This document shows, one piece after another, positions 51,464 to 58,607 of a stretch of DNA of 64,000 bases. Both the position numbers and the translations under genes were made by a program. The stretch comes from Oleomonas cavernae (lineage in GTDB: Bacteria; Pseudomonadota; Alphaproteobacteria; Zavarziniales; Zavarziniaceae). The DNA lies in NCBI RefSeq assembly GCF_003590945.1, contig NZ_QYUK01000011.1, positions 1,144,001-1,208,000 on the forward strand. Reading direction: 5' to 3'. Below the pieces are notes generated by a model. That model was not told the DNA's origin, ran no database searches, and saw only the letters and a list, made by a program, of their open reading frames with translations. Each line of letters begins with the position of its first letter. Within the stretch, counting starts at the first letter, position 1.

Positions 51464-52798
51464 TCAGGAGCCCGGCCTTTCGTCGAAGACCTTGAGGCCA
51501 TCCACCACGGTCATTGCGACCTTGCCTGTCAAGGGCAAGCCTTCATAGGGCGTATTCTTGGATTTGCCCTTGAGCTTGTCGACATCGACGCGCCAGGGCT
51601 TGTCGGGGTCGAACAGCATCAGGTCGGCCTTGGCGCCCGCCTTGAGCTGCCCGCGGGAGCTCAGGCCCAGCAGGCGGGCCGGGGCCGCGGTCATCTTGGC
51701 CAGCACCTGGTTGAGGCTCAGCCCGTGATCGTGATGCAGGGTCAGCGCCACGGCCAGCATGGTCTCCAGCCCCGCGGCGCCGAAGGCGGCTTGCGCGAAG
51801 GGCAGGCGCTTGGATTCCACATCCTGGGGCAGGTGGGCGGAGACGATCACATCGATGGTGCCGTCCTTGATCCCCTCGATGACGGCGCGGCGGTCATCCT
51901 CGGTGCGCAGGGGCGGCGAGACCTTGGCGAAGGTGCGGTAGTCGTTCACCGCGTTTTCGTTCAAGGCGAAATAGTGCGAGGCGGTGCCGCAGGTAACCTT
52001 CAAGCCCCGGGCCTTGGCCGCGCGGATGACCTCCAGGGTCTCCTGCGCCGTGACCTGCGAGACGTGATAGCGCGCACCAGTCAAGGCCACCAGGCGCACA
52101 TCGCGTTCCACCACCATCGCCTCGGCCGCCACCGGAATGCCGGCCAGGCCCAGCCTCGTGGCGACATCCCCCTCGTTCATCACGCCGTCGCGCGACAGCG
52201 AGGGATCCTGGGCGTGCTGGATCACCAGCTTGCCGAACAGGGTGGAGTAGGACAGGGCGCGGCGCATCACCCGGGCCGAGGCGACGGTACGGTCGCCATC
52301 GGTGAAGGCGACGGCGCCGGCCTCGACCAGCAGGCCCATCTCGGCCATTTCCTCGCCTTTCAGGCCCTTGGTGATGGCGGCCATGGGCTGAACCCGGACG
52401 AGGCTGTTCTCGCGCGCCCGGCGCTCGACATATTCGACGATCGCGGGTTCGTCGATCGCGGGATCGGTATTGGGCAGGCAGATCAGGGTGGTGATGCCGC
52501 CGGCCGCCGCGGCCGCGCTGGCGCTGGCGAAGCTTTCCTTGTGCTCGGCACCCGGCTCGCCCACGAAGGCATGCATGTCGATCAGTCCGGGACTGAGGCA
52601 CAGGCCGCCGCAATCCACGATCTCGACGCCGGACGGGACGCCATCGGCGAACAGGCGCGGCCCCAGATCGGCAATCTGATCGCCCACGGTCAGCAGGGCG
52701 CCCAGGGTGTCGAGGCCGGAAGCAGGATCGAGCAGGCGGGCGTTGAGATAGGCGACGAGCTTGCCCTTTTCGGCGCCCGGGTTGGCGGGACGCTTCAC
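51464..52798 (-). CDS. Dihydroorotase-like protein PyrC', metal ligands missing
   Basis: A 444-residue amidohydrolase-fold protein encoded with pyrB. The normal DxHxHLREPG metal motif is [18 protein letters not shown]: the second His is replaced by Phe, and the usual DHAPH is [11 protein letters not shown]. Many alphaproteobacteria and pseudomonads have this inactive form (PyrC'), which assembles with aspartate carbamoyltransferase and supports its structure, with the true dihydroorotase encoded elsewhere. Its start overlaps the pyrB stop by 4 bases, consistent with a complex of the two proteins. Pyrimidine biosynthesis. Confidence 0.9.
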
Positions 52799-53760
52799 GA
52801 CGCCTCTCCCTGTACGTTCGGCAGGTGGCGGGTGAGGGCTTCCAGGCAGGCCATGCGCACGGCGACACCCATCTCGACCTGCTCGCGGATGACCGAGCGG
52901 TTGATGTCGTCGGCCACCAGGCTGTCGATCTCCACGCCGCGGTTCATGGGTCCTGGATGCATGATCAGGGCATCGGGCTTGGCCAGGGCCAGCTTGGCCT
53001 GATCGAGGCCGTAGAGGTGGAAATATTCCTTCAGCGAGGGCACATAGGCGCCCTGCATCCGCTCCATCTGCAGGCGTAGCATCATGACGATGTCGACGTC
53101 CTTCAGGCCGCGGGCCATGTCGTGATGGACCTCGACGCCCAGTTCCTCGACCGCGCGGGGCATCAGGGTGGGCGGGCCGATCACGCGCACCCGCGCGCCC
53201 ATCGTATTCAGCAAATGGATGTTCGAGCGGGCGACGCGCGAATGCAGGATATCGCCGCAGATCGCCACCACCTGGCCCTCCAGCCGGCCGCGGCGGCGGC
53301 GGATGGTGAGGGCATCGAGCAGGGCCTGGGTCGGGTGCTCGTGGGCGCCGTCGCCGGCATTGATCACGGCGCAGCCGACCTTTTGCGAGAGCAGGTGCAC
53401 GGCGCCCGAATCCTGGTGGCGCACCACCAGCACGTCCGGGTGCATGGCGTTCAGGGTCATGGCCGTGTCGATCAGGGTCTCGCCCTTGGAGACCGACGAG
53501 CGTTGAACCGCCATGTTGATGACGTCGGCGCCCAGGCGCTTGCCCGCCAGCTCGAACGAGGTCGAGGTGCGGGTCGAGGATTCGAAGAACAGGTTGATCT
53601 GGGTGCGCCCGCGCAGGGTCGACTTCTTCTTGTCGATCTGGCGGTTCTGCTCGACGTAGGAGTCGGCCAGATCCAGCAGATAGGTGATGGCCGGGGGCGA
53701 AAGCCCCTCGATGCCAAGCAGGTGGCGGTGCGGGTAGCCCGTGCTCATGGAGTCGCTCAT
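52795..53760 (-). CDS. pyrB: Aspartate carbamoyltransferase catalytic subunit
   Basis: A 321-residue transcarbamylase. The carbamoyl-phosphate loop is [25 protein letters not shown] and [16 protein letters not shown] bind aspartate and phosphate, and [19 protein letters not shown] covers the 240s loop. It makes carbamoyl aspartate, the first committed step of pyrimidine synthesis. ATG 53760 (MSDSM) is used; ATG 53748 is an alternative. Cotranscribed with pyrC' and downstream of ruvX. Confidence 0.96.
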
Positions 53761-53786
53761 CGGGCTCGTTCTATAAGGGTCGCCGG

Positions 53787-54269
53787 TCACGGCCGCAAGG
53801 ACTGCCGCCGCGAACTCGCCGCATCGAGGAAGCCCTGGAGGATGTAGCTGGCGGCCAGCTTGTCGACCAGTTCGGCGCGCCTGGCCCGGGTCATGTCGGC
53901 ATCGATCATCATGCGGGTGACCGCGGCCGTCGACAGCCGCTCGTCCCAATAGGCCAGGGCCATGTCGCGGCGCTTGAGGAATTCGGTCGCGAAGGCGCGG
54001 GTCGCCTGCACCCGCGGGCCGGTGGTGCCGTCCATGTTCATGGGCAGGCCCAGCACCAGGCCCGCCACGGCGTGGCTGTCGATCAGGGCGAACAGCCGTT
54101 CGATATCCACGGTGAACTTCACCCGCCGGATGGTCTCCAGCGGGCTCGCCACCGTGCGCGAGGTGTCGGACAGGGCGAGGCCAATGGTCTTGGTCCCCAG
54201 ATCGATGCCGATCACACGGGCGGCACGGGGCAGGGCGGCTTCAAAATTATCGAAATCGAGCAGGGGCAT
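53787..54269 (-). CDS. ruvX: RuvX/YqgF Holliday junction resolvase-like
   Basis: A 160-residue RNase H-fold nuclease. The acidic residues are in [28 protein letters not shown] (motif III) and WDERLSTAA (Asp-Glu). It is 26 bases upstream of pyrB. In other bacteria this protein helps pre-16S rRNA processing and was once called a resolvase. It heads the pyrB operon here. Confidence 0.93.
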
Positions 54270-54466: not shown

Positions 54467-54730
54467 ATGACACTCAGTCGGCGCGTTTTCCTGTTCGGCT
54501 CCGCCTCGGTCCCCGCCCTGGCCCTGACCGCCGGTTCGGCGCGGGCTTGGTCGACCCAGGATGTCGGGCCGACCGAGCAGTCCTTGATGGCGGCGCGCTG
54601 CACGCCGGCGCCCCACGACAACGCTCATCTGCAAAAGGCCCTGGACCTGCTGGGCCAGGCCGGCGTGCCGATTCCGCTGACCACGGCCCAGGCCTGCCCG
54701 CTCTGCGGCTGCACGATCCAGCCGGGTTGA
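54467..54730 (+). CDS. Small Tat-signal protein with C-terminal CPxCGC motif
   Basis: An 87-residue exported protein. The N-terminus LSRRVFLFGSASVPALALTAGSARA has twin Arg and a hydrophobic core, a plausible Tat signal. The mature part is about 62 residues and ends AQACPLCGCTIQPG, with Cys in a CxxCxC arrangement that could bind a metal or cluster. No known family. The start at 54467 is favoured by the signal. A near copy of its last 14 codons lies at 57023-57067. Confidence 0.7.
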   Translation: MTLSRRVFLFGSASVPALALTAGSARAWSTQDVGPTEQSLMAARCTPAPHDNAHLQKALDLLGQAGVPIPLTTAQACPLCGCTIQPG

Positions 54731-55075
54731 TCATCTATCTTTGAGCAGCCGCCTGGGCGCCTTCAGGCGCCAGGCGACTTCGAGGCGGCGGGCCAGTTCG
54801 GCGTCGGTGATCCTGGCGGCGCGGACCAGGATGGCGGCCCAGCCCTTATAGTGGTCGGTCTCGAAGTAGATCTCGGGCGCTGCCTCGATCAGCAGTTCCT
54901 TCTCCTCGAGCGGGCACATCAGCACCAGCGTCTCGGCGTCTTTCACCCGCATGAAGCCCTTGCCGCCTACCTTCAGGGCGGGCGTGCCGTACCAGGTGCT
55001 CTCCTCGACTTGCCGCAGGCCGGCGGCCGCCTTGCGGGCTTTGGCGAAAGCGGGCGAGAGGTCAGGTGCCGTCAT
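54731..55075 (-). CDS. MmcQ/YjbR family protein
   Basis: A 114-residue protein of the MmcQ/YjbR DNA-binding-like fold. Conserved blocks are EESTWYGTPALKVGGKGFMRVKDAETLVLMCPLEEKELLI and FETDHYKGWAAILVRA, then LARRLEVAWRLKAPRRLL. No enzymatic residues are known. Its stop is just beyond the end of the small-protein gene, in convergent orientation. Confidence 0.88.
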   Translation of the reverse strand: MTAPDLSPAFAKARKAAAGLRQVEESTWYGTPALKVGGKGFMRVKDAETLVLMCPLEEKELLIEAAPEIYFETDHYKGWAAILVRAARITDAELARRLEVAWRLKAPRRLLKDR

Positions 55076-55158
55076 GAGCGGAGGCTAGGGCAAAGCCCGC
55101 CGTATGTCATCCTGGCTGCCGCGACTGCCTGTGTTTCCGGGGCGGGCCAGAGGACGGG

Positions 55159-56532
55159 TCAGGTCAATCCCCAAGCGGCTTGCCATGCCGCAAAGTCGGA
55201 TGGGCGTATACGGTAACGGGCGAAGTTTCCCTCGTGCAGCCCGACAATCTCGCGCTCCGCAAGGTCGCGAAACCGTTCCCGATCGGCTTCACCGATATGC
55301 TGCCCGATCCATGATGTAATGTGGGCGGCGGCGGCCTTGCGACCCATGTGGGCGCGCACGACCTCACCGACGATTTCTTGCAGCGCCGCCCGGTAGCGCA
55401 GCCGGAACGGATCGGGTTCGCCCAGCGATTGGCGCACGGCGGCGTAGCGTGCCGCCGAGCGTTCATAAGCCCAGATGAACAGGTCCTTGAGCAGATCGAC
55501 ACGGCGCAGTTCGTACACGCCGAGAATGGCGTCGGTATAGGCTTGCCTCGGCACGTCGGTGAAGGAGAGTGGCGCCAGATTGCGCTTGACGAGCGGGATG
55601 TTCGCCGCAAGGCGCGACACGCGCTTGTTCACATCATCGAAGGGTTGCAGGTAGGGAAGCTGCACCATGACGAAGAAAGCCTGTTCGAACGGATCGCCGA
55701 TGGCAGCCAGGGTGGCCAAAGCCTGATCGAAGCATTCCTCGATGACCGAGGGGGCTTCGAGCGGATGGAAAACCGACTTTTCGATGCCGACGGCGATACG
55801 CCGCAGGCGCCCGGCCGCTGCTTCGTCGGCTAGCAGGTTGTTGGCGAGGATCGCGTGGAGGTTGAGGATCGTATAGCGATTGAACCCGATGTCCTCGGCG
55901 GCGTTCACCAGGAATTCGATAGCGCCCTTGTGGTTCAGGATCATCTGCGCTTCGAGCCGTTCCTTGCCCTCGGCTTCCTCGCCGAAGTCGATCAGCCGTC
56001 TGGTGTCGAGCAGTGAATAGGTGTTGCCCTCGAGGCGGCTCGAGTTCCAGGACAGGTCGATCAGCAGGCGATTGAGGATTTGCTTCGCATATGTACCGGC
56101 GGGCTGGTCGCCGGTTTCCACGGCGCCGATCTTCGACAGATGCGCCCGCTCCCCGTCATCGAGATAGGTGCTTGCGTTCGGGTGGTAGGCATCGAGGAAT
56201 CTCCGATCGTAGCCGACCGGCTTGCGGCGTTCGACCGGCTGGCGGACATAGGCCAACACCTCCTTGCCGCCGCCGGACAGCGGAATTGCCGCGTCCGCCG
56301 CCGGTGGGACAGCCTGCGCCCCGCCGGGCAGGTAATATTTCGCCCAGCGGCGCTCTCCCTTGCGGACAAGCCGCCCGTTTTCGGTCAGGGAGCGAAGGTG
56401 GCGTTGAAGCGTGCGGGAGGGGATCTCCGCCGCGAGCGTCGCCGCGATCTGGCCGAGCGAGGCGCCGCCCGGGTGGCTGCGGATCACGGCTTCGATCGCG
56501 GACAGTTCCTCTGCCGGCAATGGTTTGGCCAT
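55159..56532 (-). CDS. Fic-family protein with winged helix, catalytic His replaced by Gln
   Basis: A 457-residue protein. N-terminal winged helix (residues 5-70, GASLGQIAATLAAEIPSRTLQRHLRSLTENGRLVRKG) is followed by a Fic N-terminal segment and the Fic core. The inhibitory motif S-S-R-L-E-G-N is at 164-170, as in class II Fic proteins. The Fic motif reads QPFDDVNKR at 296-304, so the usual catalytic His is Gln; LAANIPLVKRNLAPLSFTDVP follows. I recall a subgroup with this same YLQPFEDVNKR motif, so the change is probably a group feature, not a fresh mutation. AMPylation activity is doubtful. ATG 56532 follows AAGGAGC. A cluster of repeated sites lies just upstream. Confidence 0.88.
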   Translation of the reverse strand: MAKPLPAEELSAIEAVIRSHPGGASLGQIAATLAAEIPSRTLQRHLRSLTENGRLVRKGERRWAKYYLPGGAQAVPPAADAAIPLSGGGKEVLAYVRQPVERRKPVGYDRRFLDAYHPNASTYLDDGERAHLSKIGAVETGDQPAGTYAKQILNRLLIDLSWNSSRLEGNTYSLLDTRRLIDFGEEAEGKERLEAQMILNHKGAIEFLVNAAEDIGFNRYTILNLHAILANNLLADEAAAGRLRRIAVGIEKSVFHPLEAPSVIEECFDQALATLAAIGDPFEQAFFVMVQLPYLQPFDDVNKRVSRLAANIPLVKRNLAPLSFTDVPRQAYTDAILGVYELRRVDLLKDLFIWAYERSAARYAAVRQSLGEPDPFRLRYRAALQEIVGEVVRAHMGRKAAAAHITSWIGQHIGEADRERFRDLAEREIVGLHEGNFARYRIRPSDFAAWQAAWGLT

Positions 56533-56546
56533 TCTTGCTCCTTCAC

Positions 56547-56637
56547 GGCGCATAGGCTGCATGCGCCATTAAAGCGGGTTTATGCGCCGTTATCAACTCT
56601 AAGCGCCATGATATGGCGCATATTCGGGCTATGCGCC
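56547..56637. promoter_or_regulatory. Array of six ATGCGCC-type sites upstream of Fic gene
   Basis: ATGCGCC or its complement occurs at 56547, 56561, 56582, 56603, 56613 and 56631; intervals of 21 bases separate 56561, 56582 and 56603. The pair at 56603-56619 forms GCGCCAT-GAT-ATGGCGC. The spacing of two helical turns and the winged helix in the Fic protein suggest an autoregulatory operator. Confidence 0.75.
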
Positions 56638-56703
56638 AAATGGGCGTTTTTTTAGGTGTCCTGGCAAGTACCCCATCCGGCGAATGCCGTCCTGGCGCCT
56701 CGG

Positions 56704-56746
56704 TTTACGGTAAACCCACATTTGCGGTAATGTGGGTTTCCGTAAA
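56704..56746. promoter_or_regulatory. Large inverted repeat, operator of antitoxin-like gene
   Basis: TTTACGG-T-AAACCCACATT pairs with AATGTGGGTTT-CCGTAAA (a single unpaired base) around a 6-base centre. It ends 17 bases upstream of the antitoxin-like gene at 56763. Confidence 0.75.
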
Positions 56747-56762
56747 TCGTGAGGCCACTGCC

Positions 56763-57017
56763 ATGAGCCGCTTGACCATCGACATTACCGAACAGCAGCA
56801 CCAGAGCCTGAAGGCCTTGGCCGCGTTGCAGGGCAAGACGATCAGGCAATATGCGATCGAGCGGCTGTTTCCCGCCTACGCAGGCGAGGAGGCGGCGTGG
56901 CGGGAACTGCAAACGCTACTCGGCCAACGGATTGCCGAAGGCCTGTCGGGCGGCACGTCCAGCAGAAGCATCGACGCCATCGTCGATGAGGAGTTGGGGC
57001 AGGACGGCGACGCTTGA
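56763..57017 (+). CDS. Orphan ribbon-helix-helix antitoxin-like protein
   Basis: An 84-residue protein with an N-terminal CopG/ParD-type ribbon-helix-helix (MSRLTIDITEQQHQSLKALAALQGKTIRQYAIERL in pieces: strand RLTIDI, helix QHQSLKALAAL, helix IRQYAIERLF) and an acidic C-terminus that could bind a toxin. ATG 56763 is used. No toxin gene follows: after its stop there is only a short cysteine-motif tail and then a repeat. It is therefore an orphan antitoxin or an independent regulator. A large inverted repeat upstream suits autoregulation. Confidence 0.8.
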   Translation: MSRLTIDITEQQHQSLKALAALQGKTIRQYAIERLFPAYAGEEAAWRELQTLLGQRIAEGLSGGTSSRSIDAIVDEELGQDGDA

Positions 57018-57067
57018 GCGCCGCGCAGGCCTGTCCCATCTGCGGCTGCACCATCCAGCCGGGCTGA
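57014..57067 (+). other. 17-codon reading frame repeating the CPxCGC tail
   Basis: A TTG at 57014 overlaps the antitoxin stop. The frame reads LSAAQACPICGCTIQPG and stops at 57065-57067. Its last 15 codons, including the stop (57023-57067), match the end of the 54467-54730 gene at 39 of 45 bases, and five of the six differences are silent. It may be a gene remnant or a very small protein; no start is proven. Confidence 0.55.
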
Positions 57068-57082
57068 CCGCACCCCTCACAA

Positions 57083-57180
57083 GTCGTCCCGGCCTTGAGT
57101 CGGGACCTTTCTCCGGTCCAGACGCTGGGAACGCTGGCCGGAAGATTCCGGGTCGCCGCCCGGTCTGCGCCGGGATGACG
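57083..57180. repeat. REPIN-like inverted repeat (family C), copy 2
   Basis: GTCGTCCCGGCCTTGAGTCGGGACC and a distal half ending CGCCGGGATGACG form the pair, with a spacer like CCAGACGCTGGGAACGCTGG, as in the copies at 42079 and 61852. The inner halves are less matched. Confidence 0.75.
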
Positions 57181-57354
57181 GCGGGTTTCGAGCCTGTGGC
57201 GAGCCTGGATTTTTCGCCTGTCGCGTGATCGTCGGCACTGGCATGCCGTTATTTGGCACGTCGCTGCTGCACAGGATGGATCGCCGGTTGCCATTCCGTG
57301 TGGAGGCCGACATGGTGCGAGACAGGGTAGCATCGCAGGTCATCGGGGGCGTTG

Positions 57355-57690
57355 ATGTCGGGGATGAGGTCGAACTTGTTTGCGTCCGATCGACGTCTGC
57401 AAGCCTGTCTGGTCGATCATGCGGCCCATGTAACGCCGGGGTGCGAGGGGTTCTTCGTCGCCCTGGTTCAATACGCCTTGGTGCTTCTCGACGGCGCCAG
57501 GATCGATGGGCGCGAGATGCAGGCCATGACCTATGGCCCAACGACGGCACGCGCCGTTCTCACCTACAAGACCAGACGAAATATCGTGAACCACAGTTAT
57601 CAGCAATCGGCAGATGACATCGTGGGCAAGATGACAATCGCCGCCTTGGATCGTGAAATGGCGACCTACGAGCGCATGGCGCGGCGTTAA
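57355..57690 (+). CDS. Peptidoglycan-binding-like small protein
   Basis: A 111-residue protein. The pattern RRLQACLVDHAAHVTPGCEGFFVALVQYALVLLDGARIDGREMQAMTYGPTTARAVLTYKTRRNI resembles the PG_binding_1 helical fold (L-Q-x-x-L, then D-G-x-x-G-x-x-T-x-x-A-V-x-x-Y), but the repeats are longer than usual. No signal peptide. ATG 57355 follows a G-rich stretch; ATG 57364 is an alternative. The hydrolase-like gene follows after 16 bases, so the two are one operon. Function is not known. Confidence 0.65.
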   Translation: MSGMRSNLFASDRRLQACLVDHAAHVTPGCEGFFVALVQYALVLLDGARIDGREMQAMTYGPTTARAVLTYKTRRNIVNHSYQQSADDIVGKMTIAALDREMATYERMARR

Positions 57691-57706
57691 GCAGGGCGTC
57701 AAGATC

Positions 57707-58519
57707 ATGACATCATTTGTGGACTTCAGTATCGGATTTACCGGGGCGCACGACCCATACCTCAGTTCGGTAAGAGCGCCGATAGATGATCCCACAGCGC
57801 AATTGGCCGTAGATGGCAGCGGACATCCGGGCGGGAGCAGGGTGTTGGTTCGATATTGCACCGGTTCCAGCAACGCGAGCGATAGCGGCGACTGTGCCTG
57901 GATGGCCGACGACATCATCAAATTCATCAAAGCGGCTCAGGCCAAGCACAGCGCCAAGGCAGGCGCCATTTGTCTGATGGGCTATAGTTCGGGATGTTTT
58001 GTGGCGCTCGCCGTCGCGGCCAAGCTCAAGGCCTCCGGCTTCGGCCGTCTTGCCTACATCGGCCTCGGCGACCTGCCCATATTTCCCCTTGGCCGCCAGC
58101 CGGCGGTCGCGAATGGAGTCGGCCAGGTCATCCCCCGTAACGACCCGAGTTTCGTCTTGCCAGGAGGCGGCAAACCAGAGGTTATGAAGTTTCCCGTCGA
58201 TGCCGTCATCCTCAAAAACTACTACCAGACGGCTGGAAACGGTCCGATCAAGCCATTTGCAAGAAAGCCGAATGGCACAAGGGGCTGGTGGTGGGCCTCG
58301 GGAATGCTGTACGGCGAGGTCCACGGGATGATTCTTGAGTGGGACAATGTCAGGGCAGAGGTGTTGGCGGGTATTGACAAGCTGAGCCACTTCGGTCCGT
58401 TGGCACGTTTGGCTTTAGCCGACCAGTGCCATATTCAATTCTGCAAAGGATACTGCCCGGGGCAATTTCGAACCGATGCGACGGCGGCGATGCTGGACTA
58501 CATCAGGGCGAACCCATAG
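57707..58519 (+). CDS. Alpha/beta-hydrolase-like protein with GYSSG elbow
   Basis: A 270-residue protein. AGAICLMGYSSGCFVALAVAAKL (around residues 85-107) has a strand, the elbow Gly92-Tyr-Ser94-Ser-Gly96, and a helix, as in esterases and lipases. The N-terminal DFSIGFTGAHDPYLSS and the C-terminal LYGEVHGMILEWDNV region could supply the remaining triad (His in GEVHGM). No signal peptide is visible. Several cysteines occur (CTGSSNASDSGDC, QFCKGYC). It follows the peptidoglycan-binding-like gene, suggesting a shared envelope target; no closer family is recognised. Confidence 0.65.
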   Translation: MTSFVDFSIGFTGAHDPYLSSVRAPIDDPTAQLAVDGSGHPGGSRVLVRYCTGSSNASDSGDCAWMADDIIKFIKAAQAKHSAKAGAICLMGYSSGCFVALAVAAKLKASGFGRLAYIGLGDLPIFPLGRQPAVANGVGQVIPRNDPSFVLPGGGKPEVMKFPVDAVILKNYYQTAGNGPIKPFARKPNGTRGWWWASGMLYGEVHGMILEWDNVRAEVLAGIDKLSHFGPLARLALADQCHIQFCKGYCPGQFRTDATAAMLDYIRANP

Positions 58520-58607
58520 CTTCGCCGGCGCCTGTTTCCCGTGCGCCTTGCCATCGGGCACCCCACATTGCTAGGTTCCGCCCCTGCATTTTTCGGGAAT
58601 TCAAGAA

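What the first reader, a model, noticed from the sequence alone, without database searches (positions are those of the whole stretch)
57014..57067. Repeated CPxCGC tail at the end of an antitoxin gene, with a start overlapping the stop
A 45-base piece is 39/45 identical to the end of the Tat-signal small-protein gene at 54686-54730, and five of six changes are silent, so it has been under coding selection. It starts with a TTG overlapping the antitoxin stop. Either the small protein was duplicated and nearly deleted, or a 17-residue cysteine peptide is made.
Basis: seen in the sequence. Interest (0 to 1): 0.5.

Follow-up and report, generated by a model that had tools for sequence, protein, structure and literature searches.

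The report
Scar where toxin gene was lost
The short cysteine-coding stretch behind the antitoxin gene is most likely the leftover end of another gene, joined on where the partner toxin gene used to begin, and probably not a working tiny gene.

Summary
In detail: 54686-54730 and 57023-57067 match at 39 of 45 bases, with 5 of 6 changes silent. The TTG overlapping the antitoxin stop has a simple origin. The antitoxin is a ParD (PF09386). In 10 of 13 plasmid relatives fetched, parD ends in the same TTGA, and that TTG starts the toxin gene parE. In the window no parE is left; within about 12 bases of its start codon the frame continues as the last codons of a second, diverged copy of the Tat-signal gene. 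In three congeners that gene lies directly upstream of gatC; here 3.8 kb of mostly acquired genes lie between. The tail differs from the local copy (6/45) about as much as the Zavarzinia marina orthologue does (5/45), so the divergence can predate the truncation. Best reading: an illegitimate-recombination scar leaving an orphan antitoxin and a 17-codon chimeric frame. An exact motif search of 385 genomes of the class found no separate small frame other than this one. A functional peptide is unlikely (about 0.06). The parent family lies beside zinc-homeostasis genes in 6 of 10 genomes outside the genus, a better lead than the scar.

The parts
54467..54730 (+). full Tat-signal small-protein gene (87 aa, CPLCGC end), parent family of the tail
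   Evidence: found in 4 of 5 other genomes of the genus at 59-63% identity; upstream of gatC in three of them
54731..55075 (-). YjbR-family gene whose stop codon abuts the stop of the Tat-signal gene
   Evidence: PF04237, E 7e-12; no match in six other genomes of the family
55159..56562 (-). Fic-family gene with a helix-turn-helix match at its start
   Evidence: PF02661, E 5e-9; no match in six other genomes of the family; plasmid relatives at up to 75% DNA identity
56711..56738 (.). inverted repeat with 11-nt arms before parD, probable ParD operator
   Evidence: 11-nt perfect arms, loop of 6; 0 of 1000 shuffles reach it
56763..57017 (+). orphan parD antitoxin gene, full length, no parE behind it
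   Evidence: PF09386, E 3e-31; 84 aa as in plasmid relatives
57014..57016 (+). TTG: former parE start codon, overlapping the parD stop
   Evidence: same TTGA overlap in 10 of 13 fetched relatives
57015..57067 (+). joint and 3' tail of a second, diverged Tat-signal gene; with the TTG a 17-codon chimeric frame
   Evidence: 53-nt repeat; 86.8% to the Z. marina orthologue over 53 nt
57083..57185 (.). dispersed repeat beginning 15 nt after the tail's stop
   Evidence: 16 further partial copies in the genome, 40 of 168 candidates scored
58567..58607 (+). conserved gatC leader, where similarity to the congeners resumes
   Evidence: 80-84% to three congeners from 58567

Best explanation
The tail is a recombination scar, not a gene. 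Ancestrally the Tat-signal gene lay next to gatC. DNA carrying YjbR, Fic and a plasmid-type parD-parE pair came to lie at this spot. parE was cut off at or just after its start codon and joined to the last ~14-17 codons of a second, diverged allele of the Tat-signal gene. The TTG is the old parE start. parE begins TTG ACC or TTG AGC and Tat-signal genes at that point read CTG ACC, so a crossover at the shared TGACC keeps the Tat frame, and the open 17 codons need no selection. Likely route (inferred, about 0.5): homology-facilitated illegitimate recombination, in which incoming DNA from a related bacterium pairs with the resident gene on one side and joins by microhomology inside it on the other, leaving the displaced gene end as the tail. 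Shown: the repeat, the silent pattern, the parE start position in relatives, the missing parE, the accessory status of YjbR, Fic and the hydrolase-like gene. Inferred: order of events, donor, which allele is native, the microhomology itself.
For: TTGA overlap with ParE reading on from the TTG in 10 of 13 fetched relatives, annotated as parE start in seven of those ten. No ParE match below E 0.06 in the window. Tat-signal gene next to gatC in three congeners; YjbR, Fic and the hydrolase-like gene without match in six other genomes of the family; Fic and ParD relatives on plasmids. Tail as diverged as a congeneric orthologue, sharing Thr83 only with the local copy. parE starts and Tat-signal genes share TGACC in the same frame. 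Toxin loss has parallels: parE is broken in two of the ten relatives (L055, L056). HFIR joints mostly show 3-10 bp of microhomology (PMC3240628, passage).
Against: No strain with the state before the event was found. HFIR usually also deletes a similar length of resident DNA (PMC3240628, passage), and no such loss was shown here. The tail keeps frame, stop and all three Cys codons, and its differences from the local copy are mostly silent, as selection would also give. No tail-specific damage is seen in 45 nt.
Confidence: 0.82

Rival explanations
1. Same scar by another route: the Tat-signal gene was first duplicated in the genome, both copies diverged under selection, accessory DNA landed between them, and a deletion ran from the parE start to about codon 71 of the second copy.
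For: Tail and local gene alone share Thr83, as paralogues would. A dispersed repeat of this genome follows 15 nt after the tail's stop, fitting a resident gene end.
Against: No genome of the genus with the gene shows two copies. More steps are needed. Confidence is for this route within the remnant reading, not in addition to it.
Confidence: 0.3
2. The 17-codon frame is a working micropeptide: translated by coupling to parD from the old parE start, it makes a cysteine peptide that binds metal or another partner.
For: Frame, stop and CPxCGC kept; 5 of 6 changes silent. parD keeps an inverted repeat in its leader, so the operon is probably expressed. AGGA lies 9 nt before the TTG.
Against: The start is the family's parE start. 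The frame lacks the export signal and most of the parent protein. No other such frame in 385 genomes by exact motif. The silent pattern can predate the truncation.
Confidence: 0.06
3. The repeats are attachment sites: a small element (YjbR-Fic-ParD) integrated by site-specific recombination at the 3' end of the Tat-signal gene and restored that end from its previous host.
For: Direct repeats of a gene's 3' end flank 2.3 kb of acquired genes, and silent differences would suit a gene end brought from another host.
Against: The right repeat begins at the start of a lost parE, not at an element's own end. None of the six proteins of the stretch that were scanned matches an integrase.
Confidence: 0.06

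Closest known systems
ParDE toxin-antitoxin module, plasmid type (ParD PF09386; RK2 type by recall)
   Same: ParD is full length, keeps an inverted repeat in its leader and the TTGA overlap at which parE starts
   Different: parE is absent; a foreign gene end stands in its place
Orphan antitoxins from degraded TA systems (review PMC7354431, passages seen)
   Same: antitoxin kept, toxin lost
   Different: here the joint is visible and shows what the toxin gene was joined to
Displaced 3' gene ends, as in Vibrio T6SS immunity arrays (PMC5361080, passages seen)
   Same: insertion beside a homologous anchor proposed to push older gene ends downstream
   Different: other genes (small secreted protein, YjbR-Fic-ParD); a single instance; route only inferred

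Membership tests
ParDE toxin-antitoxin module | ParD antitoxin with PF09386 domain | tested here: met
   E 3.2e-31, 108 bits against cut-off 27.3
ParDE toxin-antitoxin module | parE toxin gene directly behind parD | tested here: not met
   no ParE match below E 0.06 in the window; nearest ParE-like gene of the genome is on another contig, 35% identical
Orphan antitoxin | intact antitoxin without its toxin | tested here: met
   84-aa ParD as in relatives; parE absent. Activity not tested
Homology-facilitated illegitimate recombination product | 3-10 bp microhomology at the illegitimate joint | tested here: inconclusive
   parE starts and Tat-signal genes share TGACC, but the parental sequences are unknown
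Homology-facilitated illegitimate recombination product | homologous exchange on the other side | not testable with these tools
   needs the donor or sister strains
Site-specific integrative element | integrase gene inside the stretch | tested here: not met
   six proteins of 54467-58519 scanned, none matches an integrase
Functional small-protein gene | conservation as a separate frame in other genomes | tested here: not met
   exact motif search: 5 places in 385 genomes, four full genes and this tail
Functional small-protein gene | translation of the frame | not testable with these tools
   needs ribosome profiling or a tag

The most novel reading that the evidence does not exclude
An autoregulated antitoxin operon has swapped its toxin for a 17-residue CPxCGC peptide: the old parE start now drives, by translational coupling, a new cysteine micropeptide cut from a secreted, possibly zinc-handling protein.
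Probability: 0.05. Interest if true: 0.6.

Novelty: new member of a known kind. Interest (0 to 1): 0.17.

Why it matters
It shows that a start codon overlapping a stop, followed by a coding-looking tail, can arise where a toxin gene was lost, a pattern that small-gene searches could take for a micropeptide. As biology it is ordinary: an orphan antitoxin and a gene remnant. The parent protein family, found beside zinc regulators and transporters in several genera, is the better lead for further work.

Tried and rejected
Attachment-site model: considered first because the repeats flank the acquired genes; set aside when the right joint turned out to lie at the parE start.

Neutral decay of a recent local duplicate: set aside, because 5 of 6 changes are silent (P about 0.003-0.004 under equal rates).

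ParE remnants: tblastn of ten frames of 90 or more residues against 54731-58607 gave nothing below E 0.10, and against the whole window nothing below 0.06. Nine of the ten were ParE frames; the L080 frame was out of frame and is not ParE; L055 and L056 were dropped as too short.

Origin of the cargo: ParD has no match in the phage collection. With 54600-57300 as query no plasmid record covers 80%; the listed rows match the Fic gene, and 119 of 134 records were not listed. PADLOC gives Fic-type matches only, to the Fic protein.

Named-genome scans: the single protein found no relative; the alignment found three congener loci, the same contigs, by length, as G001, G004 and G005.

Papers: listings only; passages of three papers; none read whole. 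I make no claim that anything is absent from print.

Not done: the unassigned frame 57352-57690 was not sought in the congeners; no structure was predicted; the four other distant loci were not scanned for neighbours' families.

Full report
OBSERVATION. The repeat is confirmed: 54678-54730 and 57015-57067, 83% over 53 nt, 39/45 over the last 45 nt with five silent codons and one Leu/Ile. The core occurs twice in the window and in none of 100 shuffles.

SETTING. The full gene (54467-54730) codes for a small protein with a twin-arginine-like start and a CPLCGC end. Four of the five other genomes of the genus have it, at 59-63% identity; the fifth, G003, is 74% complete. In G001 (Z. marina), G004 (Z. 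aquatilis) and G005 it lies directly upstream of gatC; in G002 no gatC was found in the 19.9 kb taken. In the window 3.8 kb lie between: YjbR, Fic, ParD, the tail, an unassigned frame and a hydrolase-like gene. YjbR, Fic and the hydrolase-like gene have no match in the six other genomes of the family, two of which (G003, G005) are about 75% complete; ParD has one 43% match, in G001. ParD has relatives on 115 plasmid records, and the Fic gene matches plasmids at up to 75% DNA identity, so the stretch is probably acquired. Similarity to three congeners resumes at 58567, in the gatC leader.

WHAT THE TTG IS. The antitoxin is a ParD (PF09386). I fetched 13 of the 115 plasmid records. In 10 the parD (81-84 residues) ends in TTGA and the frame from that TTG is ParE; in 8 of these it is open for 103 residues or more, and in two (L055, L056) parE is broken. 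Of the other three, one (L079, 43% identical) has ATGA, one (L080, 42%) has no overlap, and one (L074) has a parD broken by a stop. L076 and L078, both Rhizobium etli, are nearly the same at the joint, so the ten are not all independent. Annotators place parE at exactly this base in seven of the ten. The window's parD has the same length (84) and ends GCTTGA like five or more of them. ParE itself was not found in the window, and the nearest ParE-like gene of the genome is on another contig at 35% identity.

THE JOINT. From 57014 the sequence reads TTGAGCGCCGCGCAGG. A parE relative (L061) reads TTGACCGCCCCC; Tat-signal genes read CTGACCACGGCCCAGG (window) and CTGACCGTCGCCCAGG (Z. marina). The crossover lies within about 12 bases, where both families share TGACC in the same frame. 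The in-frame product follows from that alignment and needs no selection. The window itself has TGAGC there and the parental sequences are unknown, so the microhomology is plausible, not proven.

AGE AND SOURCE OF THE TAIL. Over 45 nt the tail differs from the local gene by 6, from Z. marina by 5, from G002 by 6, from G004 by 11 and from G005 by 14; the local gene differs from Z. marina by 5 and from G002 by 5. Tail and local gene alone share Thr83. So the tail comes from an allele or paralogue that evolved as a coding gene and was truncated later; this accounts for the silent pattern without selection on the 17 codons. It must be said that 45 nt cannot exclude such selection: tail to local gene shows 5 silent and 1 replaced codon, local gene to Z. 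marina 1 silent and 2 replaced. A dispersed repeat of the genome begins 15 nt after the tail's stop; it does not settle which allele is native.

ROUTE. In homology-facilitated illegitimate recombination one end of incoming DNA recombines by homology and the other joins illegitimately, mostly at 3-10 bp of microhomology (PMC3240628, passage). That would give full gene, foreign genes, truncated parE and displaced gene end together. The same source says a resident deletion of similar size is usual; none was shown here. A comparable displacement was proposed for Vibrio T6SS modules (PMC5361080, passages). The route is inferred; duplication with later deletion is the main alternative.

FUNCTION. 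parD keeps an inverted repeat with 11-nt arms in its leader (0 of 1000 shuffles), so the orphan antitoxin may still be expressed and self-regulated, and could blunt incoming ParE toxins (anti-addiction, inferred; discussed for orphan antitoxins in PMC7354431, passages). The 17-codon frame may be translated at some level by coupling, but it lacks the export signal, and the exact motif search of 385 genomes found no other separate frame (a diverged one would be missed).

THE PARENT FAMILY. An HMM of five genus sequences found 10 genomes outside the genus among 385 of the class at E up to 1e-4. In 6 of these 10, four of eight genera, the gene lies beside a zinc-type gene by best NCBIfam match: Zur-like in G034, G357 (with a CobW-type GTPase) and G280; AztC-like in G170 and G343; ZitB-like in G188. 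These equivalog matches are below their curated cut-offs; only the CDF superfamily model for G188 is above its own. The other four were looked at by eye only. A role in periplasmic zinc handling is a reasonable guess for the parent protein, not a result.

Noticed in passing
54467-54730; L031, L045, L046, L048, L049, L050: Distant relatives of the Tat-signal small protein lie beside zinc-type genes (Zur-like, AztC-like, CobW-type GTPase, ZitB-like) in 6 of 10 genomes outside the genus; the family is named by neither Pfam nor NCBIfam here.
   Followed up: partly
51464-54269; L028 12624-15422: pyrC-pyrB-ruvX is inverted relative to the Tat-signal gene and gatC when compared with Z. marina, where ruvX, pyrB, pyrC, the small gene and gatC all run on one strand.
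   Followed up: no
L055, L056: Two plasmid relatives keep parD but have a broken parE frame, independent cases of toxin loss.
   Followed up: no
57083-57185: Dispersed repeat with 16 further partial copies in this genome (40 of 168 candidates scored).
   Followed up: partly
56711-56738: Inverted repeat AAACCCACAT...ATGTGGGTTT before parD; a shorter CCCACAT...ATGTGGG stands before parD in L056 and L057, a likely ParD operator.
   Followed up: partly
57352-57690: Open frame of 112 aa behind the tail without a Pfam or NCBIfam match.
   Followed up: no
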